Shown here in pieces: positions 288 to 57,076 of a stretch of 64,000 nt of DNA (the first letter of the stretch is position 1; the number at the start of each line of letters is the position of its first letter). The notes under the pieces are model-generated. The model searched no databases. It saw only the letters and a program-made list of their open reading frames with translations, and was not told the origin of the DNA. This stretch comes from Coprinus comatus (Eukaryota; Basidiomycota; Agaricomycetes; Agaricales; Agaricaceae): contig JAWPGT010000002.1 in NCBI GenBank assembly GCA_034638255.1, positions 1,550,001-1,614,000 of the forward strand, given 5' to 3'. The translations under genes and the position numbers were made by a program.

Positions 288-2799
288 TCATTCATTTATT
301 TCAGTCTGGATTTCTCCGATAACGACAGCCTCCACTTTAGTACCGGCATCTAATCGCAAAGGCGAATCTGCCTTGGCAATTGGCAACACTAAAAAACCAT
401 TCGCACCGCTGAGGCTAGCAATCCGACTTGAACGCTGGCCTCCGGTGCTATATGCTTTCAACCCGTCCCTTCCGGATCGAATCATTACACGATGGAATTC
501 CATCCGTTGATCTAACGGCATTGCAGAAGCCAACTAAGGAGGAACAACATATCAATTTCAATTCATATACACGACGCTCTCGATTTTCACTAACCTCAAC
601 TGTCACCTTCGGAAGCTGTAGGAGATGGTCCGGCCAGCCAGCCAGTTTACGAAGGGCGGGTATTACGAACATGTGGAACGTCACAAGAGCTGAGGCTGGG
701 TTTCCAGGAAGCGCAAACAAGGGTTTCTCCTGTCCTTGGTCTGTGGGTATGGTGGCAAATGTTGTCGGTTTTCCAGGCTTGATAGTCACTCTGCCAAAGT
801 GTACTGTTCCGTTCAGATGTCTTTCAATTACAGGCTTCAGCAGGTCTGTTGGACCCATGGATGTTCCACCGGTTGTGATAATAATATCTGCTGTCTCAAC
901 GCCCCTGCGCAATGCATTGACATGAGCATCAACACTATTGTCTTCTAAGTATTCAGTTTTTAAAAAATTAAGTTGCGCCACATACTTGTCGCGAACTATA
1001 CCCAGATCAACTACCGAATATCCCATACTCTCCAAAGCTGCCCGAAGCGAAGGCCTGTTTGTATCAAAAATGCCTCCCCATTCATTACCTTCAGTCGTAG
1101 TTGTCGCGTCGTGGAGATCCATAATCTCATTCCCTGTACTTAGAATTGCTGCAATAGGTTTCTTGTATACCGAAACCTCTTTCTTCCCCACAAATGCCAG
1201 AGTACCAATTTCTCCCCCATTACCATGAATCCTTTCTCCTTGTTGAAGGACTAAATCACCCTTCTGTACATCCGTACCTGGTGCTCTAATATTTTCTCCT
1301 AAGGATACTTGTGCTAATGTTTCAACCTCTTTCTCTTCTCCTTCTTCCTCTCCTTCTACAGCTTCATGCGTTGAAACAAGCTTAGTGTCTTCAACCATAA
1401 TAATAGAATCTGTGCCCGTGGGTAAAGGACCACCAGTGTTAATTCGATAAATATATCCTTCGGGTAAGGGGCTATCTATAGTATGACTCTTGGAAGTCAA
1501 AACCTTATACACTCCAGGTGGATCAGTTGCTATGAAAAAAAAAAAAAGAAGGAAATCAGTCTTTTTGTCTTTTTTTTTTTTTGACAACCATCTAAACCTT
1601 GAAAGTATTTGGTTTTGATGTTGGGAGAAAAAAAAATCACTCACATCGCAATGCGTAACCATCTACACTTGTTGTAGCTCTAGGTGGAACTTGTTGAAGT
1701 GCATAAATATCTTCAGCTAGAACATGATTGCGAAGTTGAGAGTTAACCTTTTGTAGATTGATTGTGATTTGATTCGATATGAGTTTTGAGTGGACATATA
1801 CAATCATTAAAAAGACAGTGATTGGTTTTTAGACTTACAGGAAGTGTTTGTATAGGAAGACGTTTGACATTTGTCGTTATAAGTTGAATGGCAGATTCGA
1901 AGGAAATCAGAGGATAGGGTGATTGTCTATGTCTTGCAGAAACTGGATAATTCAATTTCAACGTTGTGGTTGAATAAAAGAATATGGAATATATTTACCA
2001 GGTGCAGATGGGTCATGAGATACTACTGTCCGTGGGACAGGCGCCTTATGGTCATGACTATGGTGATGGTGATGATGATGGTGATGGTGATGGTCGTGGA
2101 CAGCTGATTGTGAAGAAGGTGATGTTTTTGTGGATAGTGAAACATGTACATCGCGCCCAGTACCTCCTTTGATTAGATCCAAAGCGTGATTGATGACATT
2201 TCTTGAAAATAGTGCTTCCAAATTTTCTTTAACCGCTTTGACACTACCTGGTAAAGTCACTATCAAATGTATTCTTCCGAGTTCCTGCTATAGGTCTTGA
2301 AAGTGCAGCGAAAGGTGTATGTTTCAATGATGAGGAAAGTAGGAGATGTACTATTCCCGAAGCTTCACGGTCTAGAATTGGTTTAATAGCCTGACAACAT
2401 TACAAATTAGGTTTAAATGACTCAAATGCGTTAAAGAGATTTCGTTGATGCGCGTACCTCTGGTGTAACATCCCTGACACCAAAACCTGTTCCTCCTGTA
2501 GTGATGATCCAATCGACAGCTTCTTCACCATCACTCCATTGTTTGATTGTTGCTTGGATCTGAGCAATATCATCTGCCACAATCTGATAGTACTGTGAAT
2601 TGGGAAGGTCTGTAGGTAAGGTTTTTAAGTTGATCTGGAATTCCTGACGAGCTTTGAGAGCATCGATAATTGAGGGACCAGATTTATCTGCAGATGGATC
2701 TTTGGATGCAGTGTCGCTTACTGGAAGTATGTTAGAGCATTACCGGAAATGAAATAAGAGATACTGACTTGTGAGAACCGCCACTCGGAATGTAGACAT
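288..2799 (-). CDS. Molybdenum-cofactor biosynthesis fusion protein (MogA-MoeA, CNX1/gephyrin/cnxE type), with an apparent frameshift
   Basis: Two-domain enzyme of the last Moco steps: the MogA-like half adenylylates molybdopterin and the MoeA-like half inserts molybdate. The start at 2799 gives MSTFRVAVLTS, followed by an intron. MogA motifs include DWIITTGGTGFGVRDVTPE and LPGSVKAVKENL. A linker with a run of eleven His joins it to MoeA (SPYPLISFESA, SVDGYALR, STGNEIMDL, DIIITTGGTSMGP, ALPGNPASALVTF). The C-terminal domain IV ends at 288-290. At least six exons. Between the residues SRPIAGTRKNT and the residues IVTLPGS the frame shifts by one base, within the AAA run at 2265-2267; I see no splice site that would explain it. 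Either the gene is broken or the base is a sequence error. Everything else looks intact. Confidence 0.85.
2061..2093 (-). repeat. Imperfect trinucleotide repeat encoding the poly-His linker
   Basis: A run of TGG, TGA and TGATG-type units on the + strand reads on the minus strand as CAC/CAT codons. It encodes most of the histidine-rich linker between the MogA and MoeA halves. The repeat nature makes the length of this linker likely to vary between strains. Confidence 0.7.
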
Positions 2800-6548: not shown

Positions 6549-7368
6549 ATGCAGCTATCCCTCATCTCCACAGCAGTACTCCTCCTCCAACTCTTCGCCC
6601 CAACTCTGGCGGCTAGTGCTGGTGTACAATATGCCCAACTTGAACCCTTTGTTTCGAATTCGCCTGTGCAGAAAAGGCAGATCAGTGGCTTGCTTCGCGC
6701 CAGACAAAGTACTTGCAGTATAGGCGACAGTGCCTGTGGTACCGAGGGTTGTTGCCCATCAACAGGAGATTGTTGCAGTGGTAAGTTTACCCACTTGAAG
6801 TCTCAAGACCGGCCACTTATTGGCCAATTTTATTGTAGGAGAAAGCTGCTGTCGTAGTGGAACATTCTGCTGTACAGGTGAGTAATCTCTTCTCTCTATT
6901 CTAAAACTTGTTCTGAGATTGTGATTATTTTAGACGCGGAAGGTGGTGGCTGTTGCAGAATTGGTACAGTCTGTCAAATTGATGGCTGCTGTCCCATTGG
7001 ACGTGTTTGTGTCGGCGGTGGCGGAACCATTACCGACGAGGAGACTACAACGGCTACAATTAGTACCACTAGCATCCGAACACAACCATCCTTCACAGAC
7101 GTATTACCTGGAACCACCACTTCCCGAACTCGAACCACAAGCAACCCCGCCAGTACTGAAATAGCTAATGGTAAATCGCATTGTTCCTTGACTCAATCCA
7201 AAGCTAAACTCGTCCTTAGATGATACCGGTGTCGGCAGTGGCAATGATGACGATGGTAATGGCGGGGGTTTGCTCGGAAACCTGAATGGTTCAATGGGGT
7301 CCTTTGAGACTTCCAATGTCCTTGCTGCTGCTGCTTTGATTGTAGCTGTCTCAAATTACCTCTTATAA
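6549..7368 (+). CDS. Secreted cysteine-rich (granulin-like) GPI-anchored protein, member 1
   Basis: The ATG at 6549 opens a clear signal peptide (MQLSLISTAVLLLQLFAPTLA). A propeptide of about 30 residues follows, with basic sites QKRQ and RARQ just before the first Cys. The mature part has 16 Cys, mostly as CC pairs: GCCPSTGDCC, SCCRSGTFCC, then GCCRIGTVCQIDGCCPIG. After it come a Thr/Ser-rich stalk, an Asp/Gly-rich stretch and a hydrophobic C-terminus (SNVLAAAALIVAVSNYLL), as expected for GPI attachment. Four introns; one exon is only 39 nt (6839-6877) and all junctions fall in phase 1. It lacks the extra C-terminal domain of members 2 and 4. Function unknown; a cell-wall or host/soil-facing surface protein is inferred. 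Confidence 0.75.
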
Positions 7369-7893
7369 TTTCAAAAATCTGCATTGGTACCTTTTGCTTC
7401 CCTGTTTACGAATATGACATGTTTTGTGGACAATGATTAGGACTATTTTGAATAAATTCTTTTAATGTGTGTAGGGATCTTGAGGTTATTATATATAGGA
7501 AAACATCCGACATCAGCGGGATCAGCGCTGATTTATTTAAAGGAAAAGTAGTTGTCAAAAAACAATGCATCACATTTCAACAGACGTCAACGTAGGTCAA
7601 CGCCCAACGTAACATTGTACATTTCCAAATTCGTCGAGCTCTTTTTGCGAAGATGGACCTTTGAAAACAGCATTAAAAATGGCACGAACTTTGCGCGTGC
7701 TTCATGAACAGGAGATTTATGCATGCTTAAAGGTGTTTAAGCACACTGAAGCATGCATGGTCGCCGCTGGACGCTTGGCAGGGTCTTGACACAACCCTTT
7801 CCATCCAAAGGGCAGTGTGTTTCTGAGTATTTCGTATATAAACAGGAAGGTTAAGGACTTGTCTTTTTCTGTGTCTCACAGCTTGTTCATACC
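7369..7893. other. Intergenic region between cysteine-rich genes 1 and 2
   Basis: About 525 bp without a supported gene. It should contain the 3' end of member 1 and the promoter of member 2. A cluster of GTCAACG-like words lies at 7584-7608, and a TATA-like box lies close to the downstream gene. Confidence 0.5.
7835..7842 (+). promoter_or_regulatory. TATA-like box of the second cysteine-rich gene
   Basis: TATATAAA, 59 bp upstream of the ATG at 7894, at nearly the same distance as in member 1. Confidence 0.45.
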
Positions 7894-9274
7894 AATGCGC
7901 CTCGCACTCATCCAAACCACGGTTTTCATTGCTTTTCAACTATTCCTACCGAGCTCCCTTGCTCAGAGAAGTCTTCTTGAACACCGTGTGTCGAGGGTGG
8001 GACCCTCTACCGCCAAAACTTTGGTAATTCGTGGACTTCTTGGGAAAAGACAGTCTACATGCGATCCAGGATACGGTTCATGTGCTGGCGATGGATGCTG
8101 CCCCATTAAAGGAGATTGCTGCCAGGGTAAATACCCATAATTTTATGCAATTAACGCTCAGAACTGAAGATTGTCTAGATGGAGACTCCTGTTGTCCCAA
8201 CGATACGTTTTGCTGTTCGGGTAAGAGGTTTTCTGTATTTACTGATACCTGATAATCACACTGAATTTTAAATAGACGAGGATGGTGGAGGATGTTGTCG
8301 CGTTGGTACATATTGTCTCATTGATGGATGTTGTCCTACTGGCAGCATCTGTGAGGACGATGCAGATACCTCCACCGGCACTTCCAGGACCACCACCAGG
8401 ACTACGACAACTCTTGCTAACCCAACAAATTCAGCTAACACAACCACGACCAGCGCTTTCCAAGCGCCAATTGTCACGGATTTCCCTACTTTCACGTCAG
8501 GTGCGAGTGTCATTGAATGAACCATTTTTAAACTATTTTTTTTACTTATGTACCACCTAGATGCACCTAGTACCCCTGCGCCTTCAGGAAGACCGACAGC
8601 TTCCGATGGTTTTATTGTATCCTCAATTGCCTTGGACGACAATAGGATTGAATGGGCTGGTGCTAACTGGCATGATGGAGAAGAAGGATGTGGTGGTTCT
8701 GAATCCAGACGTACTGATGTGAGATCAGATAGATTCACTGCCATGCTTGACTCCGAGGGTATGCCAAGTCTAACACTAACGGAAATTATGAGGAGCTGAC
8801 CATTAATTATTTCCAGTCCGAAGCATTCATTTGAACATCAACAACTTGAATGCCATGTGGACTTTATATATCAATGGTGATTCAACTCTTTACTTCACTG
8901 ATGTGCTCGATTTCGCAGAAACGTGCGATTGGAAGGGTATTTCAGTCCCATCTGGAACTCAGAGCGTGAATGTCACTGTCGTTGTCCATGGAGTACCCAC
9001 CAGTGGCAGGCGACAAGAAATGGACTCTTGGTACTATCAAGTAAATGAGCTTCTGTAAGTCTTCTACCATATTTGTTGTCTATCGTTCTGCGATTCACTA
9101 GTTTGCAGCGTGTTGGAACGTGATGATGGTACCAACAGTGGTGGTAGCAGTGACAATAGTAATGTTTCTGGCAACAACGGAAACACTAACGGTGCGTCTC
9201 ACATGTCTAATGCCTCTTGGTTGCACGCCAGCGGTATTGCACTTGTGGGGAGTCTCCTTGCCCTTGTACTATAA
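7894..9274 (+). CDS. Secreted cysteine-rich (granulin-like) GPI-anchored protein with C-terminal domain, member 2
   Basis: Signal peptide MRLALIQTTVFIAFQLFLPS, then a propeptide ending LLGKRQSTC. About 17 Cys follow in modules GCCPIKGDCC, SCCPNDTFCC and GCCRVGTYCLIDGCCPTG. The last is nearly identical to the module in member 1, so the two are tandem duplicates. A Thr-rich stalk leads to a domain of about 150 residues (IVSSIALDDNRIEWAG, MWTLYINGDSTLYFTDVLD, DSWYYQVNELL) that is also present in member 4. A Gly/Asn/Ser linker and hydrophobic tail (GIALVGSLLALVL) indicate a GPI anchor; the stop is at 9272-9274. There are at least six exons, the Cys ones joined in phase 1 (for example 8170-8220, 51 nt). 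I do not recognise the C-terminal domain; a beta-sandwich is a guess from its alternating hydrophobic pattern. Confidence 0.75.
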
Positions 9275-9981
9275 TAGTACCAAAGGCTGTTTGGCCTAAA
9301 TACGGATATACCCTCAGAAGGACCTTGTTAATTACTAAGTAGCAATCTTACCTAGTTCACAAATCATTTGAATGCTTCGTAGCAAGACAGGATAATCTAT
9401 CTACTGTCCAGCCTTCCAGTGGTGTTAGTGATGGCGGTGTGTCCCAGGACACATTGGTATAAGACTATAGTGCGGTGCACATTTCTTGGGATTACAAGTG
9501 GAAACGTCAGGATGAGAAAAATCATCGTCGTATATTGTATTATGGGAGTGATAAGAAGGAAAGAAGCGTTTGCTGAGAGCAGGGGGGCGGATTCCGAGCA
9601 ATCCCTGACGCATAGTCATTCGTGAGAATCGCCATATATGGAAGAAAAAAAAACTGTCCAAAGCAGGGTCTCTTGTCACAGACTACAGTGGGAAGATCAC
9701 TGATAGATATGATGTCAATATCTAGATAAACATATTGTTGTGTATGTATCCAACTGGCATCGAATGAATTTCTACTTAATATCTACGGACCGACGGTACA
9801 ACTCCAATATAAGTCTACGGTTTTCAGTAGTTATAGTAAGTAGGTGTATAGCCTGAGCCCTGAAGACAGAAAATACAGCAACAATAGTCTTAGAAACATA
9901 GTGGGCTATACTGTGTTACTATACTGAATATTATAAAAGTGAGAACTCAAAGACAGAAAACATTAAAAACACAACTTCTCA
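9275..9981. other. Intergenic region, no supported gene
   Basis: About 700 bp of AT-rich sequence. Short frames on both strands lack homology or codon structure that I trust. A TATAAAA-like word occurs near 9933, about 50 bp before the ATG of the next reading frame. Confidence 0.5.
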
Positions 9982-10545
9982 ATGACTTCTACACTCCCAA
10001 TCACTATTACTCTCGACTCTCTCACTGGTATTGGCCCTCCAATGCAGTTAACATCCATACTTGTCAAGAAAACCCACTATATCCAGTGTGATATTTGTGG
10101 CGCTAATATCAAACTTGGTGCAAAAGCCAATCCAAATATTCTTTACACTCATCGGGACAAATGTCGCAGGGCTGGTCCTTTGAAGTTGGACACTAGTCGA
10201 TTCCGACTTCAGAATGCCATAGGTGTTACTACTGCCATGTCCAGCTCTGCGGCGCCAGCGCTAGTGACAAGCCCTTGGGGACCTAAACCATGTCCTGGTA
10301 TTTTGATTCAATGGAATACTGTATCTATCTTTCGTTCGTACCCATTCCATCAACATGAGAATGAAAGGATTGATTGGTTTCCTGTTGGTTTAAACAAAAA
10401 CAATAATTCTATTATTGTCCGATCCAATAACTGCTCCCATTTATCACTTGGGTCATCCAACACACCATGCATACAATGTGCAATGATCATAACTTCCTCC
10501 AACTACCTCGCTATGAAAGACTATGCCTCTTCAAATGATTGTTGA
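9982..10545 (+). CDS. Truncated member of a repeated Agaricomycete protein family, possibly transposon-associated
   Basis: Single 187-codon frame. It has a zinc-finger-like HYIQCDICGANIKLG motif, followed later by a His and a Cys (THRDKC), then PCPGILIQW, FRSYPFHQHENERIDWFPVG and IVRSNNCSHL with CIQC. I recall a large, highly copied agaric protein family with the same order of motifs, but I cannot confirm it here. The frame stops early at SSNDC; shifted downstream sequence (EEHLPMTYYRGELR) could be a decayed continuation. It may therefore be a fragment of a longer gene or repeat rather than a working gene. Confidence 0.35.
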   Translation: MTSTLPITITLDSLTGIGPPMQLTSILVKKTHYIQCDICGANIKLGAKANPNILYTHRDKCRRAGPLKLDTSRFRLQNAIGVTTAMSSSAAPALVTSPWGPKPCPGILIQWNTVSIFRSYPFHQHENERIDWFPVGLNKNNNSIIVRSNNCSHLSLGSSNTPCIQCAMIITSSNYLAMKDYASSNDC

Positions 10546-10664
10546 TATGCACGTGTCAAGTAAAGAGGAGCACTTACCCATGACCTACTACAGAGGGGAG
10601 CTGAGAGTAGATCATCACGTGTATGTTATACAGTTGAAGGGGCAAAGTTCTGGCCTCCTCCGTC

Positions 10665-11359
10665 ATGTCATTCCGCGCCGCCTCTCGAACGTTTGCAAAA
10701 AATCTATGTGGATTAAGGCCGCGTACTTTGTGTGGCGGAAATACCATTCGTTTGTCAATTAATCACATCTCAACAAGAAAAATCAACACTACACCTACAT
10801 GGCGGGACCGATCCTTCACGAATCTATTAGCAGACAGTGACAACCCACCCCCGGTTCAAGTCAGTTCTATTACCGACGAAGGTATCCAGTTAGAGGATGG
10901 GTTGTTAATTCCTTCAGCCTGTGTGTTCCTGGAGGGCCACGTTTTCTTGTGGGATGTTCCCGCAAAATTATGGGAAGGTTGGGGACCCGAGAGGTTCGAG
11001 CTGTTCGAAACGGCTATTCCACGACCAGGTGAGTACACTCCCCACAATTCTAAAAGCGCCTCATCATTAACCACCGTATTGTAGAAATGCTGATTCTCGG
11101 AACGGGACGAACATTGGTCCAACCACCACCCACTTTGCGCCCTTACCTCACCAAGCTCGGTATTCAACTTGACGTCATGGATACTGTACGCCAATTTCTT
11201 ATATTTTCAATCCACCTGTCTGACGCGAACGTTCAGCGTAACGCTTGTTCCACATATAACCTCTTGTCAGAAGAGGGTCGGCGAGTAGCAGCTGCATTAT
11301 TACCTTTGAAACCTCAGAGTTGGCAAAAAATACAGACGCGAAAAGCTTCCTCAAGTTGA
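10665..11359 (+). CDS. NDUFAF3: NDUFAF3-like mitochondrial complex I assembly factor (Mth938/DUF498 family)
   Basis: The ATG at 10665 opens an Arg/Ser-rich N-terminus consistent with a mitochondrial presequence. Domain motifs include FTNLLADSDNPPPVQVSSI, LEGHVFLWDVP, then after an intron (about 11030-11083) EMLILGTGRTLVQPPPTLRPYLTKLGIQLDVMDT. A second intron leads to NACSTYNLLSEEGRRVAAALLPL near the C-terminus. This order is typical of NDUFAF3, an assembly factor of respiratory complex I in the matrix/inner membrane. Three exons, stop 11357-11359. Convergent with the following minus-strand gene, with a 40 bp gap. Confidence 0.85.
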
Positions 11360-11398
11360 AAATGATGCCAAAAATGTAACTGGTTATTACTCCTCTAT

Positions 11399-12173
11399 TT
11401 AAATATCTGCTTTCCTTTTGCCTAAACTTGTACTGGAAGGTTCTGGTTCAACTACCGATCCCTCGTCTTCCTCGTCATCTAATGGTGGGAGGGTATATTT
11501 TGGTGGAAGAAGTTCGCCTGAATGGATGGATTCACAGTCAAGTTGCCGGATATTATTGTTTATGTTCATTGGGTGGATGTGAGAGAGAGAGAGAGGGAAA
11601 GAAAGAAAGAAAAATGTATATAGAATGTGAATGATCAACCCCGCCAACAGTGTTTAATACTTTGGGTAAAGCAATGAAATCTCAACTCACCAGTTTCTTT
11701 ATCCCTAAATTGAATAAAAAGCGTCTCCCAACCAGTTATTCCAGTATACATCATCTTCGTTTCATTTGCGTTAATAAGCTTATATTCACCCGTCGGTTTA
11801 TTTTTTTCCATGACTGCTCGACATAACTCAAAGTCTTCAAGACTTGTCACTTGAGGAACTATATCATCAGGAGTAGGTGGTAAACCTGTATCGTAGGCCA
11901 AGTGATCCTCTTGCATTTCATCGTCACCTATACCACCACCGCCACCACGTGTAAGTGGTACACCAACATCGGAAGTCAACGCTTCAAACACTTCTTGTTT
12001 GAGTTCTTCGAGTGTTTCTGTAGGTTCGACAATAATATTGATACTGAGTTTATGTGTTTTAATTTGAAGAAGGTATATTCTGGGTTCAACGCGTGGTGGC
12101 TGTATAAACCATAATGCATGTTGAGAATAAAGAGAGTATACTGACTGCAACCCTAAACGTGATCACTTACCAT
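11399..12173 (-). CDS. Small protein with ubiquitin-like (beta-grasp) N-terminus
   Basis: The ATG at 12173 is followed directly by GTAAGT, so the first coding exon holds only the start codon. The next coding exon begins PPRVEPRIYLLQIKTHKLSIN, giving MPPRVEP. The IYLLQIKTHKLSINIIV..TLEELKQEVFEAL pattern resembles a ubiquitin-like fold (inference). Middle motifs are LTRGGGGGIGDDEM, DFELCRAVMEKN and GWETLFIQFRDKETG. A 173 bp intron (11518-11690) carries a pyrimidine-rich tract, and the last exon ends in an acidic segment plus GKRKADI. About 190 residues. I know no function; the C-terminal KRK could be a nuclear signal. Confidence 0.6.
11581..11613. repeat. GA/GAAA simple repeat inside an intron
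   Basis: (GA)n followed by (GAAA)n on the + strand. Read on the coding strand it is a long polypyrimidine tract within the last intron of the ubiquitin-like gene, upstream of its acceptor at 11518. Confidence 0.8.
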
Positions 12174-12873
12174 GTTCGTGGCACTTTAATATAGGTAATT
12201 ATCAAGAGGTGTTGAACGCACATAATTAGAACACTATATTTGTATCAGAAGGTATTGCCAAACGAATAATCTCCGTTTGGTACATCCGATCAAGCCAATT
12301 TAAAACTCCGACCTCAGTGATTATATAAATCTCGCCAAATTTTCTTTTTTACCCTCAAGTGTCCGACTTCAACCCATGAAGCGTCTCTTTGAGAGTTCTC
12401 GCAAGGGACTCTCAATCTTTTATGGCGTTATTACTTTCAGGTTGACGGAGCGAGGTGTCCGCTTTCTTCACGGGAGGTGTTGACGCTCACGAGACTGAGC
12501 GATTTTCGCATTTTTGTCTTCGTTCGTTAAGACCTTTCGGCATCGTCTTCGGACTTGATGTAGATTGGTTGAGCGTTAGGTGAAGTGCGGGTTGCGTCGT
12601 TATATTCCTATACCTTCCGTACTAGTTACTATGTGGCATTGACGGTTGGGTGAGACCATAACGAATACATTTTCATATTGTGACTTAGATTTGTTAATCA
12701 TCAATAAAAAACATATTTACATATTTGCTACCAATCTCTGAGATTGACAAAACAAGCATGACATCAGACTTTTTTTCCAGCAATCCTTCACAAGATGAGA
12801 TGTTGCCAGAAAGAGTGCCATTAGTAAAGCCCTAGGTCAATATAAATACACAACCCCCAAAACCCTCTCCTTT
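12174..12873. other. Intergenic region, no supported gene
   Basis: About 700 bp that must contain the promoter of the ubiquitin-like gene and the 3' untranslated part of KEX1. No long frame and no repeat were seen. Confidence 0.6.
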
Positions 12874-15366
12874 CTAAGTTCTGTTTCTACTATACTCTTC
12901 CTCATCTTCATCATCGCTGCCCACATCAAACACAACCGCCTTCTCCTTCCCTTTCAAACTTCTCCTCGACGACGTATTATCTTCATCATCGACATGAGCA
13001 TATCCATTTCTATTCCCATTCCCATTTAAATTGGATATAGATGAATTGAGTGGTATGCTTTCTTCATCATCACCTCCGTTTGGTCCATGATCTGTTGTCA
13101 ATTGTACACGTCGACGTTTAATGCGGCACCAGACAAATGTCCCAATCAATATGAATACTAGTAAGAGAACGAGAGCTGCTGATCCGGCGTTATAATATGC
13201 TATACAAGGATAATTGATTTAATCAAATGATAATGGGGTATATAAAGTAGAAAATCTTACCTTCCCACATAGCTTTATCCTGTTCAGGTGATTTTGCGGG
13301 TGGTACTGCATTAGTCGGTTTCGCTTGTTGTTCTTCAATCAATATTGGTTTAGCTTGACTGCCTATACTGCTTGGTATACGAGCAGAGCCCTCAATGATG
13401 GCTGAGAAATTAACGTTCATGAATCGTAGCATCATGTCATGTGCGACATGGGGAACATCATAGGGTGCCATATGAGATGCATTAAAGATCTATTTCATTA
13501 AAGCGATTCTGTCAGAGATGTGGTCAGGTTTTCGAAAGGAAATGCATACTTTAACGTAAGTAAGATTTCGAGATTCAACCCATGTACCCGCAGGGGTTGC
13601 ATTGACACTCCATGATTGAGTTTGTACAGTCTAAGGATCGCCGTAGTTAGTAATACATCCATTTCATCGGGAAATATATGCTCACTCCTAGGCCAGTATT
13701 ACCGTTCCATGTTAAATCTTTAATCATAGCCTCCAATCCAACATAATTGCAAATCAAATCCTGATCACCAGCAAAGATCAATACTGGAACCTTTTCGATA
13801 ACTCGGGGGAGAATAGTAAACGATGAATTCATTTTGGACTCCTGGAAAGCACGATGAACGTCTCCTCTGCACTCTACCCAATTTCCCGGTCGTGCGGAAG
13901 CATGAAGGGCATCAATAACACCAGATTGCTAACCAAATATCAGTGAACACTGGAGTCGTGAAGAGCGAGATGACATACACCAAGGAATTGTGTGATGGGG
14001 TGAATGTCGGGAGGCCAGTTCATGCCGCATGCAGGCATCTCATCGTTAAACCGGACATCATAAATATTGATACAGGTCTCTGTACCATTTACTCTGTAAT
14101 TGTTTTAATGAATTGACATACATGATCGGAAATACAGGAACTCACTGTTTTTGCCTAATTTTTGCTACATCAAGAAGTAGGCTCTGACATTGATCAATTA
14201 CCATCAGGTCTCCAGATTTCTCTATGGCCGCAGCGCAATGATCAGTAGCTTTTTTAGCTTCCTTCCACGGCTGTATATCTGTTAGTCAGAATGATTTGCA
14301 TAGCGAGCGATCAGAAACCTATGGACACGTACTGCAGAATTCTCCTCTAGAATCCCAACCTTGACAGAATAGTCCAAGTAGGACATATAGTGCTTTTTCG
14401 GATCTATCCACCCATTTCCAATGGCGATGCCCTTGAGAGGGACGCCGATATTCGAGTTGAGGAGAGAATCAGCTGTGACATGGTTTCAATATGACTACAG
14501 TGTTGGGAGTAGGTGGTTAACAGACGCACCATAGTATGGTATCCATTGTCCTGCAAAACTTTCGCCAGCAAGGTACGTCTACAGAAATGATGAGAGTAGA
14601 CCATTAAACCATTGTGCGCATGCGTACATCCATGCGTTTGTACTCGGGGAATACACTATAGAATTGGTCGAGGAAAGTTAGGAATTGTTTTTGACCCTAA
14701 AGAACGTCGGAATGAGCTTGTTGTGACGATGAATGAGGCAGTGATGTATAATTACTTCATCTATGAAATGAATGTATCGATCAGTACTGGTGTACGAGAA
14801 GCCTGTTCCTGCAGGCTGGTCGACTGTGTGCAATATGAGTGTGGGTACATTGGTTGGATTGTCATGATGAACGCACGGAAGACCATAGTGGTGTATTCCT
14901 CCCAACCACCTTCCTGTACACGGAATTCGCCTTTATCGTCCAAACGCCATGGACCAACCTCCATCATGAGACCGTCGAATGAGGAGCAGCCTGGGCCTCC
15001 CTATTAGAGAATTAGATTCAGGGTAATTTATGCTGATAATATCACTTGCATTGAACCAAAAAACGATTCGTTCTCGGTCTGCTGTTCGCCTGTTCTTTAC
15101 GAGGACGAAGAAGAGATGGGGGGTGACTTCGTCTGTCGAGAGGCGTGATATGTTGTACTCGGATGAGAGATGGCCGGCATATATTGTGAGAGGGTGGTTT
15201 GGATCTTGGTGGATGCCCGGAATGGATGGGACGTAGAAGGACGCTGCGGACGGGGCTGGGTGGAGTGAGATGAAGAGAACACGTTTGTTGTATTGGACAT
15301 ACCTGTTTGAGGTGCGGCAAAGGCATGGAGCAGGAAGGCCAGCAGCAGAGGAATGGCGAGCAGCAT
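12874..15366 (-). CDS. KEX1: KEX1-type serine carboxypeptidase (Golgi, peptidase S10)
   Basis: The preferred start at 15366 gives a strong signal peptide ([19 protein letters not shown]); an in-frame ATG at 15414 is possible. Family motifs in order: [39 protein letters not shown], the catalytic Ser in [15 protein letters not shown], the Asp in [16 protein letters not shown], and the His in [14 protein letters not shown] transmembrane helix ([18 protein letters not shown]) and a basic then acidic cytosolic tail follow, as in KEX1. The enzyme removes C-terminal Lys/Arg after Kex2 cleavage in the late Golgi. About ten exons. It lies among four genes for secreted proteins that have Kex2-type sites, so they are plausible substrates (inference). 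It shares a 71 bp divergent gap with the next gene. Confidence 0.93.
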
Positions 15367-15401
15367 GGGACTGGCGGAGGCCAGGTGGCAGGATGACAAC
15401 C

Positions 15402-15410
15402 TATAAATAA
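15402..15410 (+). promoter_or_regulatory. TATA-like element in the KEX1 / ER-protein divergent gap
   Basis: TATAAATAA lies in the 71 bp between the two divergent start codons, 28 bp before the plus-strand ATG. It is the only core-promoter-like word in the gap. Confidence 0.35.
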
Positions 15411-15437
15411 TCAATTAATTTATTCTTTCTACTTCCC

Positions 15438-16657
15438 ATGCATTTCCTCTGCCTCCTCCTTCTGCCTCTGGCTGCCTCTGCACAATATTTCTCAGATGGA
15501 TGGCAACCAGGCCAGCCAGTACACACTACCACACACCCAGCACCAGTATACACACCCGGTCCCGCGCAAATCACCCCGCCAGAGCCAAAGCGTATCTCCG
15601 ACCTCTTCAATCTCAACAATATCCTCACTTCGTCTCCCGTCGCTTCACTCTTCCAACATCTCGGCATCAACATCACAGAACGCGTCGAGGCTACAAAGGT
15701 CAAGTTCTGGGACGAGCGCATACCCTTGATCACAGACAGTAATTACGAGGACCTCATCGTCAACGAACCTCTCACGGATCAAGAAAAGCGGGATCGCGTC
15801 TGGGTAGTCGTCATGTATGCTTTAGTCCTCTAGCACACAAGCCTTTTACTCAATACTATTACTAGTTCCGTCACGGCCTCAAAGCAAGACGGTATATCCA
15901 AGTATCTCGACCATGTTTTCGACTCGGCTTACAACGAGACGGTAAACGCGAATGATCTCCCCCATGTGCGCTGGGGACGCATCGACTACCTCAATGTCAC
16001 CTATCTGACTACCAAGTGGAATGTCTGGCAGTTCGTCTTTTTTGTTTTCCTCAACAATAAAAACTGCCCCTGACTGTATGTCATCACAGAGCACCGTACC
16101 TTATGATTATCACAAACCGTGGCCAAACTTTACGCTTCTACAAACCCTACCAGCTAAGGCTCAGGGAAAATGCCCTCCGCGAATTTCTGCTTAACGGACA
16201 CTGGGAGAACACACCTACCTGGGAGTCGCGCTATGCACCTGGGGGCGATCGGTATGTTATTCTCGGATTATAATGCCATACTCTAACAAGTCAATTTAGC
16301 GAGTGGATCATGCATCACTTCGCAACGTACCTCACCCGAATTTATGATGCAGTCATTCTTGTGCCCCGTTGGTTATTTTTCATGCTCACAGGCGGTCTTG
16401 CCTCCATTATTATCAGCTTCCTCCATCGCCCTTCAAAAGCCCAAGCGACACGTCAAGCCCTTGTGAAGCCTGAGTCTGCAACTGAACCCGCACCCAAACC
16501 AGAGGTACCAGTCAAATCCGAGGTACCACAACCTTCCGCAGGGGCAAAAGCTATATCCAAGCCTGAGATACCAATCAAAGTTGAGGAGTCAGAATCTTCT
16601 GCGAAGGCAACTACAACCCCTAAACGCACAAGGAAAACAAGGAGCAAGAAGAATTAA
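15438..16657 (+). CDS. Single-pass ER membrane protein with probable thioredoxin-like lumenal domain
   Basis: The ATG at 15438 opens a signal peptide (MHFLCLLLLPLAASAQ) followed by YFSDGWQPGQPV and a Pro-rich segment. The lumenal part (DRVWVVV, SKYLDHVFDSAYNET, VRWGRIDYLNVTYLTTKW, APYLMIITNRGQTLRFYKPY) has the strand-helix rhythm of a thioredoxin fold but no CXXC. A hydrophobic helix (WLFFMLTGGLASIIISFL) near residue 270 precedes a cytosolic tail rich in Pro/Lys/Glu repeats (KPEVPVKSEVP, SKPEIPIKVEE) ending in KTRSKKN. Four exons. The family looks like a conserved, uncharacterised fungal one; a role in protein folding in the ER is inference. Confidence 0.6.
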
Positions 16658-16819
16658 CATGATTTTCTTCGTTCGGCGTCTTGGTTTATCATGTGTGTGC
16701 TCTCATATATCTTATGCATTATGTTTGATACCACTTTGTATACATACCCTCAGTTGTGTATGCTTATTTTAGCCAATGTAGCACTACAGTTACACAACCC
16801 ATCATATCAGACGCAAGCA

Positions 16820-17386
16820 CTACGCCGGACAATGTTTCCCTCTGAGACAACAGCCTTCATCCCCAAACGCAAGCTCAACACAATACGTATTCGATGGGCA
16901 GCAATGGTTCACTAATCTCCCCATAATATTGAGACATTTTAACCCCCTAGAGTTAAATGGAATACTCACTTTTACACTTGGTACTATTATCTGGGCAACA
17001 ATTGCATGTATTTGTATTTCCATTCCACCAACATCCTGTACCAGAACCATTAACCAAACCGATCTAAATCTGTAAAACTCAAACTCAAACTCACCTGGAC
17101 TACATCCCCACCTCTTCCCCATAATACTAGTTTTCTTCGGGTCCAAACCATTAGCTGATTCCGATTCTACATCCCCTCGGCGAGAATACATATCCCTTTG
17201 CTTAAAGGTTGTACTAACTTCTTCAGGTTGTATGTATGAACGGAATCCCTTTATACCAGTATCTCCTTTTTCTCCACTATCAACATTTCGGTCTCGGTCA
17301 CCATGTGTAACAACTCTACCAGTGCCGTGTACCAATAAAAAAGATGCAGCAAATGCGAATGCGGTTGTAGGTGTCCAGAACTTCAT
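16820..17386 (-). CDS. Small secreted cysteine-rich protein, member 3
   Basis: The ATG at 17386 gives a signal peptide (MKFWTPTTAFAFAASFLLVHG), a propeptide of about 65 polar residues and the Kex2-type site MGKRWGC. The mature part is short, with 12 Cys: GCWWNGNTNTCNCCPD, NHCCPSNTYC and GCCLRGKHCPA, then the stop. Three exons join in phase 1 (GTGAGT donors). There is no stalk and no hydrophobic tail, so the product should be soluble and secreted, effector-like in size. The final module matches the end of member 5. Confidence 0.65.
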   Translation of the reverse strand: MKFWTPTTAFAFAASFLLVHGTGRVVTHGDRDRNVDSGEKGDTGIKGFRSYIQPEEVSTTFKQRDMYSRRGDVESESANGLDPKKTSIMGKRWGCSPGEFEFEFYRFRSVWLMVLVQDVGGMEIQIHAIVAQIIVPSVKVSIPFNSRGLKCLNIMGRLVNHCCPSNTYCVELAFGDEGCCLRGKHCPA

Positions 17387-17936
17387 CGTTTGTTTGCTAG
17401 TAATATGATGTAGATATAGATTTTTGTTGGGGGTATGAATATTAAACGTCAAGATTCATATGTAGGTGATATCTGCAATTTGGAAATGTATAAGATCGGG
17501 TATTTATAATTCCGTGTTTCTCTTTTGTGTCCTAAGGAGCCAATGCGAGGAGAAGGTTGGAAGTGGATGATTTTTTCCCAGGCTCGATCTTTACTTCTAA
17601 CCTCCTTTCTCCTCACCCCCATAATTTGTTTCGGAGTAGTTTATTCTCCTTGTTCATAACTTTTTTTTTCCGAGTATAGGATATATTGATTTGTCGTGTT
17701 GTAGTTACTTGTCTCTCAATCAATTAACATAAGGAGAGGGGCAAATGTATTTATAGAATGCCCCTTTAACTTATTCAAATTCCTATATCTAGTCACTAGT
17801 GTTATTTTTAGGTTTTCTGTCCAAGTTACACATACGTAGAAGGCAACAACCTAATAGATCAATACAAAAAAACTCAGGTACATTACATACAATAATTATT
17901 CGAAACAAACGTCCACTGGCAGATGTACGCTAGTTA
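17387..17936. other. Intergenic region between cysteine-rich genes 3 and 4
   Basis: About 550 bp, AT-rich, without a supported gene. It contains the promoter of member 3 and the 3' region of member 4, both on the minus strand. Confidence 0.5.
17501..17508 (-). promoter_or_regulatory. TATA-like box of cysteine-rich gene 3
   Basis: TATAAATA on the minus strand, about 115 bp upstream of the ATG at 17386. Confidence 0.4.
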
Positions 17937-19720
17937 TTATAACCATGCTACGAGAACGGCCATGATCATGGAGAATACCATATAGTGTGAACCAACCGCA
18001 GATACAATAGCCGGTTCGACACCATTACTACTATCAGTATTATTGCTATCAGTAGCATTGTTCAGGACACTAAATAGTCGACAGAAATAGGTCAGTAAAA
18101 AACATCTTCTAAGCCAGCGAGAGGATAGTAGTAGGAGTAGTAAATTACTTACAGAATTTCATTTAATTGGAATGACCAATCTCCATTCTGTCTCTTGTTC
18201 AAACTATTCCCAGAAGGTCCCACAACGATAATAGAAATATTAAACCCTGACGGATTTGATGCTACCCCATTTATCAAAGGTATCTCCACATAAGCACAAA
18301 CTTGAGTAGATTGTCTTGTAACGACTTGTGAAGACCCATCAACTAAAATCCTGAACATGACGTTCGTAGTTGTATCGATGCTTAACCAGATACTAGTAGA
18401 AACTGGAAAAGGCGATGTAGGAATAAGTGGAAAGTATGAATTAATTATTAAGGCTAATCATACCTGAGGAAATCATTACCCAGAATGATTGATTGGGAGA
18501 GGTACAGCGTCTAGAAGCCGTGGAGCAGGGGTTGGTAGAATTGAATTGTAATGATTCCCAACCAGAAGACCAAGTTATCGCTGTGCTACTTGCACCAATT
18601 GAGACAATTTGTTGTCCAACAGAAGCGGTAGGTCGAGGTGTAAATGCAACGGTAGGTGCAGTAGTACTAGTGGCTGCGTTGAATTGAATGTAGTTGTGAG
18701 TTTGAGTAAATGGAAAATTTTACAAAAAAAAAAACTTACAGGTAGTAGCAACTGAGAAAGTGGTAGTTAGCGTGCTTGAACTCGTACTGGTCGTGCGAGA
18801 GGTAGTAGTACGAGAACTAGTCGAAGTTGTTGTACTAGTACGATGTGTGCTTGTAGATGAACTTGTAGCTTGACTTCCTGGGCCACCTCCCTCAAGACAC
18901 CTTGGGTTACCCGCACTATCGCGAACACATTCTTCATTTGGGGCTATATATACAGAAATAAAATGTCAAATTATAAGGCTTCGCCACATATGTTTTTTTT
19001 TTTCAAAAAACTCATTCACATACCACAACAACCATTAGTGCCTGGACAGAAATGAAAACCTGGATCGGCGCATTCATTACTGGAACTTGAGCATATTTCA
19101 CCATCCGGACAGCAACCACCTGGGACACAATATGTTCCTGGTCTGCAACAATTGCCTGTAAAATGTGTAAAGTGGTGTACTTGAACAGTTTTGGTACTTG
19201 AACTTACTACCAGGACAACAATCATAACCTCTTGGGCAGCATTCATCACGGCCTCTACATGCAACGTCGGTGATCTGACAACAATCTTAAACGATCAGTT
19301 GAATATATGGGAGATGGGTAACAAAGTATCAATATATCCTACTTGATCCATGACAAACGAAACCCGCACGACAACATCCTAGAAATTAATGTTATGCTAT
19401 TTCTAAGATAGAAGTGGATTCAAGGCGAAGGACATACTATCAGGACAGCAATCACCTCCGACAGGGCAACAAAAGATTCCGTTGGAGCATACACCATACC
19501 CAGCTCTGTTGCAGGTGAACTGTCTGGTAAGGAGTTCTTCAATTCTTGTGGAAGCACTCCGCCTTTGTAGTGATGGTTCTTGTGGGGTACCCGAGGACAG
19601 TGCAGGTTTGAGTGCAGGTATGGTCCTACCCTCACGAGGTAATAATATCCCTCGAGAAGTATCTCTGGAGAGGACGCCAGATACGAATACCAAGAGTAAG
19701 ATGATAGAATAGTATAACAT
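17937..19720 (-). CDS. Secreted cysteine-rich (granulin-like) GPI-anchored protein with C-terminal domain, member 4
   Basis: The ATG at 19720 opens MLYYSIILLLVFVSGVLS, a signal peptide. The propeptide ends IEELLTRQFTC. About 28 Cys follow, the largest array of the family: FCCPVGGDCC, RCCRAGFVC, DECCPRGYDCC, NCCRPGTYCVPGGCCPDG, FCPGTNGCC. A stalk of almost pure Ser/Thr with Arg leads to a C-terminal domain (IVSIGASSTAITWSSG, MFRILVDGSSQVVTRQ, GDWSFQLNEIL) that aligns with the end of member 2. An Asn-rich linker and hydrophobic tail (MVFSMIMAVLVAWL) suggest a GPI anchor. About nine exons; the Cys-module exons begin and end in phase 1. Architecture matches member 2, but the two sit about 9 kb apart on opposite strands. 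Confidence 0.75.
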
Positions 19721-38875: not shown

Positions 38876-41800
38876 ATGCCTACGCCTTCAGAATCGTTGT
38901 CGCCTATCTCCAGGCCACCCTCTAGCCTCTCTAGACCAGATTCCGGTCTTTCTCATGGAACCCCTATATCACGACCTCCCTCAAGTGCTTCTCTCCGCCC
39001 AGTTTCTAGGGCATCAACAACGCGTCCTTCCTCCGCAAGACCTTCATCATCTGTCGGGTTTACGCGCCCTCAATCAAGGTTTTCTCAGCGCACACATGCC
39101 AGGCATGCTAAATCAAAGCTAAAACCTTTGGCGCAAACCTTGGTTAACCAAGTAACTGGACTCGAAGAGGCCGAAGACCCAGAAGGATATCAAAGATCTG
39201 TAGAATATGTCGTGAAAAGCTTGGAATCTACTACATTGAATAAAGGTGCTGCTAGGGTTGATATGAGTTTTGTAAAGCAGCAAATCAATGGGTATTATCA
39301 TCTTGAACTTAGGGTCGCATATTGAATCTGAATTGAGTGCCGTTCTCTCAGTCATGCTCTCAAAGCTCGAATTTCGATGAATGATCCTATATCCGAAGCC
39401 CTTCTTACTGCTTTTAAGAGATTAACGACTCATGTGGAAGAAAGAGAGAAGGATTTGGATCATGATATTCAAGTATGGAACATAATCTTGGCCAACTTTA
39501 TCCTCGGTGACATTGAATATTCAGACAACCCATTTTCCAGATCACCTACAGTTTTTAGTACGTCGTTTATAATGCTACTATTAATTATAAGGAAACTTAA
39601 GGATATACTCAGCTGAATTTATCGCAACCGCCAACCAACACAACAATAGCGTACGCTGAACAGTTTCTAGATGAAATCAAGAACCCACGCCCACCAGTAC
39701 CTGAAATAACATGGAAAGATATCTTAGCAGATGATCCATTTGAAGGAGACCATTGGGAAGGTATTCTGGATTCTAATACAAGAAAGGCCCGTGATGAAGA
39801 TTGGGAAAGTACACCTTCGCTTTCGTCTTGGAGCTCTGGTGATGAAGGGGTACGGTTGGGTGAAATAATCAATGAGGTAGATGAAATTAGGTTTGAAGAG
39901 TTGCGGAAAAGTAGGCGGGGACAATTTGGCACGGGCTTGAATTTTGAGTTTCTCAAATTCAATGATGATAGTGCAAAAAAAGAAAAAGATGAGGAAGATG
40001 CGGAGGATGTGGTCGAAAAACCTGGCTCAAGTGTTCCGCCGTTTACATATGCGCATAGGAAGGAATTTGAGGATCTACAGGCTATGCAATATTGGAGAAA
40101 GGATTGGAAAGGTTACGTGCCTCCAAGTAAGAACTTTGATATTGGAGATCCTTCTACACTGGGTGCGTGTAAAGAAGCATTTGACTTGATGGAATATACT
40201 GAAATGCTTTTAGGTGCCGCTTTCGCGAACGCTCTCGCAAGTCATAAAAGTTAGCTCGAATGCGACACAAGTTCTACTACAACATGAAGTTAATTCTTCC
40301 TATTGAATGTTTAACCCCTGGACTCATATCTTGTTATTAGAAATACATTAGGGAAGAAGACATGGTCAGAGAAGTTTATATGGCTCTTCAAGGGCTAAGT
40401 AACATTGTCTTGACTTGGAAAGCCAACGCATATACCGTATGTAGTGCAACTTGGGTGCTAACTATTGTGTCGAAATTAACAACAAATCTCAGATTACTCC
40501 AGATACACCACGCCTTGCTCATTTGACTCTAGGCTCTCAAGTAGCTATTCTAAGCTCTCTTGCTGAAACTGCAACCACACTAGAGCATCTCCGACGATTT
40601 CGAAGTTCGGTTTTCTCTCTTTTACACAATCGAACTAAAACAACCACCAGAAGTGGGACTACCGTTCCATCTGCAAATATAACCCGGACTGTAGAGGCAT
40701 TCGCAGATGCTATCGACAGTGAAATACGTGTATTCGATACATGGTGTGCCGACCAAGAAACAGATATTTGTCGCATCCATGCTACATTTACATCCAAGCC
40801 AGATTCCGACTTGGTGGTTAGCCTCCTCAAAACTACCAAAGATCTGAACGATACTTTTGAACACACCTTCAACGTATTACATTCTGTAATTCATGAAGTG
40901 TTCGCAGCCGATTTATCTACATCATCCGAATATTGCGTTTCTTATCTGACAAGTGGAAGGAAGGCACCAGCGATGGTGGCTTCAAAGTTATTGGATGTTT
41001 TATTCGGAACTGTTCAGATGCATTTAGAGAGGGAAGAAAGTGTAACTAGTGGAAGACTAATGAGAGTTTTTGTAAGAACAGCAGAGCCGGTTTGGGAGAT
41101 GTGTGGGAAGTGGTTGAGAAATGGGATGGGATTGTATCTGAATATAGGATTGGGGATTGGAGGTTTGAGTAAGGATGATTTAGAAGAGGAATTCTTTATT
41201 GAGTCGAAGGTGTTTGAACTCAGTGGTGAAGGAACATCAATCGGGTTGATGCATCCTGATTTCTGGAAGGAAGGATATGGATTGCGAGTTGATATTGTTC
41301 ATGAGGTAATGGGTGATGATGATCAAAGTGAGATCAGACAAAAAGCAGTTCCCACATTTTTGGACCATGTCGCGGGGATGATTTTGAGCACAGGAAAAGC
41401 TGTTGGATTGATTAGAGCTCTTGGATCAGTTACAGATATTGAGATGGAAAACAATGCGGATAAGTGGGAATCGTTTAGGGAATTAGTTGGATTAGAAGAA
41501 AACGGGAACTCTAGTGGAAAGCTATTCTCAGTTTCTGTGGATACTTTATCAAGAGTCATCTACGATCGGCTCTTACCCAAATGTCAAGCTATTGGTCATA
41601 GCTTGGTCAATATTGCTGTGGACGAATGCGGGCTATGGAAACACTTGGGAGCAATCGAAGACATCTTCTTGATGAGGAGGGGTGATACAATAAGTCATTT
41701 TGTTGATATCATCTTTAACAGGGTGAGTGACATATGTTTAAATGATTTGATGCTGTAGATCATGGAATTTATAGATGGATATTAAACAACCTTGGAGTGA

Positions 41801-56396: not shown

Positions 56397-57076
56397 CTAA
56401 CCACATCTGCTCCCATTGCTGCAGCACCTAATTTCACCTCTGGCAATTCCGCTACGGTAGCAGTATGAGCTACAAATTATCAAAAAATTTATCAGTAATG
56501 TTGAGATACTAAATGAAAGAAGAAAATTTTACCCGCGGGGACAGCAGCGCCCATCTAATTTAAGATGACAGGGTCGTCAACTATACTGTTTCAAGGATAT
56601 GAACAAAGAAAGACACGTACCACCACAGCAAACAGTGTCTGCTGGGCAACAACCACGTTGTGCACACCCGTTCATGTTATTGGGGCAACAAACTACACCA
56701 CAATTAACACCCTGCTACACAACATTAAATAAAAAATTCCACGAAAAACTTACTTTGTGAGGTGTAGCACCATCGATCCCTTCCACAGCAAGTACCTAAA
56801 ACCTACGCATTAGCATTGAAAGTAATTGAAAAAGAATCATCATATACCATTGCTGCAACAGTCACCACCCAGAGGGCAACAAGATCCCGTATTACTGCAG
56901 CGGCCTCTGTCGGGTCCACAATCTTGGCGCTTGACTAGCAAGCCTTCCAAGTCTGAACGTTCAGAAGGGGTGGCATAGCTTACGGTCTCAACAGAGGCAG
57001 AAAGCTGTACAGTAGCACTGGAGAGACTGACAAAGTAACCACCGAGAACAAGCAGAGAAGTAATTGAGAGACGCAT
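56397..57076 (-). CDS. Small secreted cysteine-rich protein, member 5
   Basis: The ATG at 57076 gives a signal peptide (MRLSITSLLVLGGYFVSLSS), a short propeptide and the basic site LLVKRQDC. About 22 Cys follow: SCCPLGGDCC, TCCGRDRWC, ICCPNNMNGC, RGCCPADTVCC, GRCCPRGSYC and a final module ending RCCSNGSRCG at the TAG 56397-56399. Exons are 20-70 nt and mostly join in phase 1. There is no stalk and no hydrophobic tail, so it should be soluble. The last two modules resemble member 3. It is 36 kb from the other four. An alternative reading of the last exon (HTATVAELPEVKLG) has no Cys and was not chosen. Confidence 0.65.

What the first reader, a model, noticed from the sequence alone, without database searches (positions are those of the whole stretch)
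6549..19720. Local cluster of four related cysteine-rich secreted-protein genes, with a fifth at 56.4-57.1 kb
Five genes share a signal peptide, a propeptide with a basic site before the first Cys, and an array of CC-paired modules. Two (6549-7368, 7894-9274) are tandem and share a nearly identical module (GCCR(I/V)GT.C.IDGCCP.G). Two lie on the minus strand at 16820-19720. One is distant, at 56397-57076. Cys counts read by eye are about 16, 17, 12, 28 and 22. They come in GPI-anchored and soluble forms. I know of no named fungal family with this exact build; the module resembles granulin. They may be wall-associated, effector-like or defence proteins. This is my best candidate for an undescribed system.
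Basis: partly seen in the sequence, partly recalled or inferred. Interest (0 to 1): 0.8.

Follow-up and report, generated by a model that had tools for sequence, protein, structure and literature searches.

The report
Fungal granulin-like surface protein gene cluster
Five related fungal genes in one 50-kb stretch encode secreted, cysteine-stapled proteins, three of them apparently tethered to the cell surface; they belong to a widespread but little-described fungal family, so they are real and worth naming, but not a new kind of system.

Summary
All five genes (A-E) give intact spliced models with a hydrophobic N-terminus, a basic site just before the first Cys, and a CC-paired array of 16, 16, 12, 28 and 22 Cys. 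A, B, D and E share the place of the first array intron. Relatives occur in Basidiomycota and Ascomycota; D's 28-Cys frame recurs in Mycena and Hohenbuehelia with 3-6 of 18 gaps changed. A Mycena relative hits only this region of the 35.7-Mb genome, bar one weak chance match. The array resembles granulin but misses Pfam's cut-off and the recalled 12-Cys spacing. B and D carry a further beta-rich domain, possibly a carbohydrate-binding-like jelly roll (from a relative's weak model). Best reading: Kex2-matured, disulfide-stapled hairpin stacks, held on the wall by GPI stalks (A, B, D) or released (C, E), as structural, binding or defence proteins. Function is inferred. Nine paper searches showed no description of the family. 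New variant of a known kind.

The parts
6549..7368 (+). Gene A: 218 aa, 4 exons (6549-6780, 6839-6877, 6934-7170, 7220-7368); hydrophobic N-terminus, pro-segment, 16-Cys array, S/T-rich stalk, hydrophobic C-tail (putative GPI)
6693..6704 (+). Gene A L-x-x-R pro-site (LRAR|Q), 3 residues before the first Cys
   Evidence: position counted from the model
6839..6877 (+). Gene A 39-nt phase 1-1 micro-exon coding one CC module
7895..9274 (+). Gene B: 366 aa, 6 exons (7895-8126, 8179-8220, 8276-8500, 8561-8758, 8817-9054, 9109-9274); 16-Cys array, Thr-rich stalk, beta-rich C-terminal domain, putative GPI tail
8039..8050 (+). Gene B L-x-x-R/K-R pro-site (LGKR|Q)
   Evidence: position counted from the model
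8179..8220 (+). Gene B 42-nt phase 1-1 micro-exon coding one CC module
8561..9054 (+). Gene B exons 4-5: most of the beta-rich, possibly carbohydrate-binding-like domain
   Evidence: alignment with Mycena relatives; fold inferred from relative P0005
16820..17386 (-). Gene C: 149 aa, 3 exons (17386-17095, 17035-16970, 16911-16820); 12-Cys divergent array, no C-tail (soluble)
17111..17122 (-). Gene C K-R pro-site (MGKR|W)
   Evidence: position counted from the model
17937..19720 (-). Gene D: 441 aa, 8 exons (19720-19438, 19378-19343, 19285-19208, 19155-19024, 18943-18740, 18673-18464, 18402-18153, 18069-17937); 28-Cys array, S/T-rich stalk, beta-rich C-terminal domain, putative GPI tail
19523..19534 (-). 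Gene D L-x-x-R pro-site (LLTR|Q)
   Evidence: position counted from the model
19024..19378 (-). Gene D exons 2-4: three phase 1-1 exons (36, 78, 132 nt) of the Cys array
18153..18673 (-). Gene D exons 6-7: most of the beta-rich, possibly carbohydrate-binding-like domain; intron phases as in gene B
56397..57076 (-). Gene E: 145 aa, 5 exons (57076-56848, 56795-56754, 56692-56621, 56554-56533, 56469-56397); 22-Cys array, no C-tail (soluble)
56927..56938 (-). Gene E L-x-x-R/K-R pro-site (LVKR|Q)
   Evidence: position counted from the model

Best explanation
The five genes are one locally expanded branch of a family of secreted pro-proteins found in both Basidiomycota and Ascomycota. The leader directs export; a Kex2-type protease cuts after the conserved L-x-x-R (or K-R), usually leaving Gln close before the first Cys; the CC-paired array then folds into a disulfide-stapled stack of short beta hairpins, granulin-like in general build. 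In A, B and D an S/T-rich stalk and a C-terminal GPI signal fix the stack to membrane or wall; in B and D a jelly-roll domain between stalk and anchor probably contacts a wall or foreign glycan. C and E lack the anchor and are released. Together they give the hyphal or fruit-body surface a protease-resistant layer of binding modules, for wall cohesion, adhesion or defence. Array length changes by gain or loss of short phase 1-1 exons, each coding one module or a few. Shown: gene models, family membership (C less firmly), Cys frame shared across genera, pro-site, exon symmetry, clustering. Inferred: Kex2 cleavage, GPI anchoring, hairpin stack, jelly roll and glycan binding, exon gain and loss, biological role.
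Confidence: 0.5

Rival explanations
1. Defence proteins: the arrays, above all soluble C and E, are antifungal or anti-grazer proteins deposited in the surface layer of hyphae or fruit bodies, as cylindracin is in Cyclocybe.
For: Same broad build as cylindracin: signal peptide, N-terminal segment ending in Arg, Cys-rich C-part, agaric origin. Cylindracin lies in the pileus-surface polysaccharide layer and its Cys-rich part inhibits three filamentous fungi (PMC11532979: abstract and passages). Tandem and local duplication with Cys kept and other residues diverging would fit an arms race (inference).
Against: Cylindracin has 8 Cys in 95 aa, against 12-31 here, and no sequence comparison was made. 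In the mushroom it was seen only uncut; the cut after Arg was seen in Pichia. GPI-type anchoring of three of five members fits poorly with a diffusible toxin.
Confidence: 0.2
2. Secreted effectors acting on another organism (plant, fungus or animal), matured by Kex2 like the K2PP effectors.
For: Pro-segment with L-x-x-R or K-R, as in K2PP effectors (PMC8528282, passages); Cys-rich; soluble forms. Some relatives are from genera that I recall as plant pathogens (Colletotrichum, Tilletia).
Against: Relatives are also in genera that I recall as saprotrophs or lichen-formers (Mycena, Hohenbuehelia, Variospora); three of five carry a putative GPI tail and a stalk; the way of life of this fungus is not known.
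Confidence: 0.1
3. True granulins: a fungal branch of the animal/plant granulin family acting as growth-factor-like signals released from a pro-protein.
For: Granulin is the only Pfam model listed for B's array (16.9 bits, E 0.0071); granulin A and granulin-5 head the PDB profile search; local superposition on three granulin fragments at 1.1-1.7 A over 20-29 columns; 3 of 26 relatives named 'Granulins domain-containing protein' by UniRef.
Against: Below Pfam's cut-off of 20.9 bits in every window protein and array, with no granulin match at all listed for the arrays of A and C at E 10; 13.0-15.3 bits in P0001-P0003; only 3 of 18 relatives match granulin at E 0.1 or better (which gives no bits); 12-Cys granulin spacing in 0 of 31 proteins (spacing recalled); superposition E-values 2.6-4.1, with unrelated chains ranked higher.
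Confidence: 0.12
4. Convergent Cys-rich proteins or mis-spliced models: the five are not one family.
For: Cys-rich sequences align easily; Cys-fixed shuffles reach the observed pairwise score at least twice in 500 for four of ten pairs. C's exon layout differs and its match is short.
Against: The profile of relatives scores each of the five above all 300 Cys-fixed shuffles; shared intron position and phase in A, B, D, E; shared pro-site.
Confidence: 0.05

Closest known systems
Granulin (Pfam PF00396; human granulin A 2jye, carp granulin-1 1qgm)
   Same: CC pairs at short regular spacing, short beta hairpins in a weak model, secreted; weak profile and local structural similarity
   Different: Below the curated cut-off; different Cys spacing (CC5CC4CC5C rather than the recalled 12-Cys ladder); L-x-x-R pro-site, S/T stalk and GPI-type tail in this fungal family
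Fungal relatives named 'GPI anchored protein' or 'Granulins domain-containing protein' in Mycena, Colletotrichum, Penicillium, Emericellopsis
   Same: Same family by profile; pro-site, array, stalk and tail in most complete ones
   Different: By eye, ascomycete members have shorter or differently spaced arrays; the C-terminal beta domain was seen in Mycena and the start of it in Hohenbuehelia P0014
[quoted passage not shown]
   Same: Pro-segment ending in L-x-x-R or K-R (PMC8528282, passages)
   Different: Those are effectors of plant pathogens; here three of five have GPI-type tails and no host interaction is known
Cylindracin / PRI3 of Cyclocybe
   Same: Secreted Cys-rich agaric protein; N-terminal segment cut after Arg in about half of the protein made in Pichia; surface-layer location
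   Different: 8 Cys in 95 aa, seen uncut in the mushroom, no stalk or anchor reported in the passages read; not compared by sequence
CE2 esterase N-terminal jelly roll and CBM36/CBM6/CBM61 modules
   Same: Fold match of the C-terminal domain of relative P0005
   Different: No esterase domain in A-E by Pfam; CE2 and CBM61 rows have 8-16% identity

Membership tests
Granulin PF00396 | Score at or above Pfam's curated cut-off (20.9 bits) | tested here: not met
   0 of 5 whole window proteins (A-D, E) and 0 of 5 arrays; arrays: B 16.9, D 9.7, E 8.2 bits, none listed for A and C
Granulin PF00396 | 12-Cys granulin spacing (pattern recalled, not from a call) | tested here: not met
   0 of 31 proteins: 5 window and 26 relatives, some of them partial
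Granulin PF00396 | Stack of beta hairpins on a disulfide ladder | tested here: inconclusive
Fungal family of P0001-P0026 | Match to a profile of outside members beyond Cys positions | tested here: met
   5 of 5, 0/300 Cys-fixed shuffles reach the observed bits; C by a small margin
Fungal family of P0001-P0026 | L-x-x-R pro-site within 6 residues of first Cys | tested here: met
   4 of 5 window proteins (not C, which has K-R), 18 of 26 relatives
K2PP effectors | Pro-domain cut by Kex2 | not testable with these tools
   Motif present; cleavage needs an experiment
K2PP effectors | Effector activity on a host | not testable with these tools
   No host or expression data
Cylindracin / PRI3 | Eight conserved Cys in a 95-aa precursor | tested here: not met
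   12-31 Cys in 145-441 aa against 8 in 95
Galactose-binding-like jelly roll (CE2 N-domain/CBM) for the C-terminal domain of B and D | Jelly-roll fold | tested here: inconclusive
CE2 carbohydrate esterase | Esterase catalytic domain | tested here: not met
   No esterase family in Pfam scans of A-E
Hydrophobin (one relative, P0018, bears this name in UniRef) | Pfam hydrophobin match | tested here: not met
   No hydrophobin match for A-D at E 1 or for E and the five arrays at E 10, nor for P0018 among 18 relatives scanned at E 0.1

The most novel reading that the evidence does not exclude
An unnamed class of fungal surface proteins, spread over Basidiomycota and Ascomycota, in which a granulin-like hairpin stack, lengthened or shortened by gain and loss of symmetrical micro-exons, is mounted on a GPI stalk together with a lectin-like jelly roll; the clustered paralogues form a tunable recognition or armour coat, with soluble members as its released arm.
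Probability: 0.25. Interest if true: 0.6.

Novelty: new variant of a known kind. Interest (0 to 1): 0.42.

Why it matters
Cys-rich secreted proteins are a large unexplained part of fungal proteomes (general knowledge). Here one family is tied together by a Cys frame shared across genera, a pro-site, and intron positions shared among the paralogues, so that its members can be found, named and tested. If the array is a granulin-type stack, fungi carry their own version of a module best known from animals and plants. The phase 1-1 micro-exons give a simple route by which array length can change without breaking the frame.

Tried and rejected
A sixth member elsewhere in the genome: whole-genome searches with B, D, E, C, P0005 and P0014 hit only A-E, apart from two weak places taken as chance. 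C86:36959-37066 (E 0.011) lies in low-complexity sequence where I see no Cys array. C29:95085-95339 (E 0.167) partly overlaps a 289-aa frame that looks TPR-like by eye; it was not searched further. The tool says counts are lower bounds, since genes match exon by exon and only best candidates are scored.

Granulin family search of the own genome: no match, but the control rang in no genome either, so it shows nothing.

RNA families: none at the gathering score in the window. Repeats: only five rows of short tandem arrays in the window, one of them an 18-nt repeat in B's own module; no transposon search was made.

Structure of the array alone: model too weak to assign a fold. In one search the rows are filled by the C-terminal domain, so the array is barely tested there.

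Literature: nine paper searches for fungal granulin-like or mushroom Cys-rich proteins showed no description of this family in what they listed; two lists were cut (15 of 1,048 papers, 12 of 81). A tenth search was for Kex2 motifs. Papers opened: PMC8528282 (passages), PMC11532979 (outline with abstract, and passages), PMC5662087 (passages: apple proteins with granulin domains, not relevant); the rest were seen only in search listings. The library holds open-licence papers only.
Full report
What is there. The window lies at C2:1550001-1614000 of a 35.7-Mb genome in 134 contigs, not named; the closest relatives of the genes are from Mycena, so an agaric-like basidiomycete is likely (inference). 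I rebuilt the five genes by hand. All 21 introns are GT-AG, 49-83 nt, and all models run in frame from ATG to stop. A and B are tandem on the plus strand; C and D lie on the minus strand 7.5-10.5 kb from the end of B; E lies 37 kb further on, also minus. Lengths are 218, 366, 149, 441 and 145 aa with 16, 18, 12, 31 and 22 Cys for A, B, C, D and E.

Is it more than chance? Six CC-C-CC motifs fall in the window, all in these genes, against a mean of 0.07 (max 1) in 30 simulated windows. That is a mild control, since the motif was written after seeing the modules. The harder question is whether the likeness goes beyond Cys content. A profile from the first 240 residues of 14 relatives scores the five arrays at 22.5, 29.2, 16.9, 71.1 and 39.6 bits; 0 of 300 shuffles that fix every Cys reach these values for any of them. 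The relatives had been found with A, B, D and E in the queries, so for these four the test is not fully independent; C was in none of those queries, but its margin is the smallest. Pairwise tests are weaker for D-E (21/500), C-D (18/500), A-E (4/500) and A-C (2/500); the other six pairs give 0/500. The case therefore rests on the profile, the intron positions and the pro-site. The first array intron lies in phase 1 one or two residues after the GDCC motif in A, B, D and E; B and D also agree in the phases of their last three introns, in stalk and C-terminal domain (1, 1, 2). In all, 18 of 21 introns are phase 1. C fits least well: different exon layout and K-R in place of L-x-x-R.

Exon symmetry. 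The short internal array exons are 39 nt (A), 42 nt (B), 66 nt (C), 36, 78 and 132 nt (D) and 42 and 72 nt (E), all phase 1-1; the exception is E's 22-nt exon, which ends in phase 2. Such exons can be gained or lost without breaking the frame, which is a simple way to the range from 12 to 28 array Cys. That they were gained or lost in this way is inference.

Relatives. Three protein searches (all that the cap allows) gave 26 proteins: with B alone 3, with profile A1 13 (only the 7,995 candidates sharing most words were scored), with profile A2 19. Fifteen of 26 are from Mycena; one each from Hohenbuehelia, Atractiella and Tilletia (Basidiomycota) and from Colletotrichum, Penicillium, Tirmania, Variospora and Emericellopsis (Ascomycota; placement recalled); three have no organism. 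Sensitivity is limited to relatives that share short words, so the true family is probably larger. UniRef names three of them 'Granulins domain-containing protein', four 'GPI anchored protein' and one 'Hydrophobin'. D's Cys spacing, C7C5CC5CC3CC5C4CC6C5CC5CC4CC5C4CC5C6C7C5CC5C9C, has 18 gaps; Mycena maculata P0005 differs at three of them, each by one residue, Hohenbuehelia P0014 at four and Mycena capillaripes P0004 at six. Odd tails in P0006, P0012 and P0018 right after 'DGCC' look like read-through of an intron at the place of D's fourth intron; that is an inference from the protein models.

One locus. The relative P0005, from another genome, gives seven matches in the 35.7 Mb at E 1 or better: six in A, B, D and E, and one at E 0.167 elsewhere, taken as chance. 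P0014 hits D and E only. Searches with B, D and E hit members of A, B, D and E, plus one weak low-complexity place with D. C is found only by itself.

Pro-site. L-x-x-R ends within 6 residues of the first Cys in 4 of 5 window proteins and 18 of 26 relatives; C has K-R. Gln follows in 16 of these 22. The eight relatives without it are P0002 (His for Arg), P0017, P0020 and five partial or oddly predicted models. PMC8528282 uses K-R, R-R and L-x-x-R as Kex2 motifs (passages). The count is biased, because the searches used words from that segment and most hits are from one genus.

How it most likely works. Export, Kex2-type cutting at the pro-site, folding into a disulfide-stapled hairpin stack, then display on a GPI stalk (A, B, D) or release (C, E); in B and D the jelly roll, if it is one, probably holds on to a glycan. 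The end use, a protective or cohesive surface layer, is the least certain step. A defence role like that of cylindracin, which lies in the pileus-surface polysaccharide layer and whose Cys-rich part inhibits three filamentous fungi (PMC11532979, abstract and passages), is the main rival. No sequence link to cylindracin was tested and the Cys numbers differ. Its N-terminal segment was cut after an Arg in about half of the protein made in Pichia, but in the mushroom the uncut form was seen.

Verdict. Its interpretation is partly right: one family, granulin-like, no Pfam family above cut-off; but the family is widespread in fungi and no system is shown. New variant of a known kind; interest 0.42.

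Noticed in passing
window about 13200-15400, minus strand (extent read by eye from the frames): A serine carboxypeptidase gene: the 79-aa frame at 14764-15000 matches Peptidase_S10 (36.9 bits), and its only PDB sequence match at E 0.01 is yeast KEX1. It lies between the A/B and C/D gene pairs. KEX1 trims peptides made by Kex2 (recalled), so its place beside pro-proteins with Kex2-like sites may be chance or not.
   Followed up: partly
window 8290-8335: An 18-nt tandem repeat (2.6 copies, 67% matches) inside gene B's CC module, as if a half-module of six residues had itself arisen by duplication.
   Followed up: no
window 448-1662, 40445-41758, 46071-48941, 52726-53766: Neighbouring frames match ordinary gene families: MoeA/molybdopterin binding, gamma-tubulin complex component, TRP-like channel, CDC14/SIN component; five of the ten frames scanned had no Pfam match at E 0.001.
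   Followed up: no
   Followed up: no
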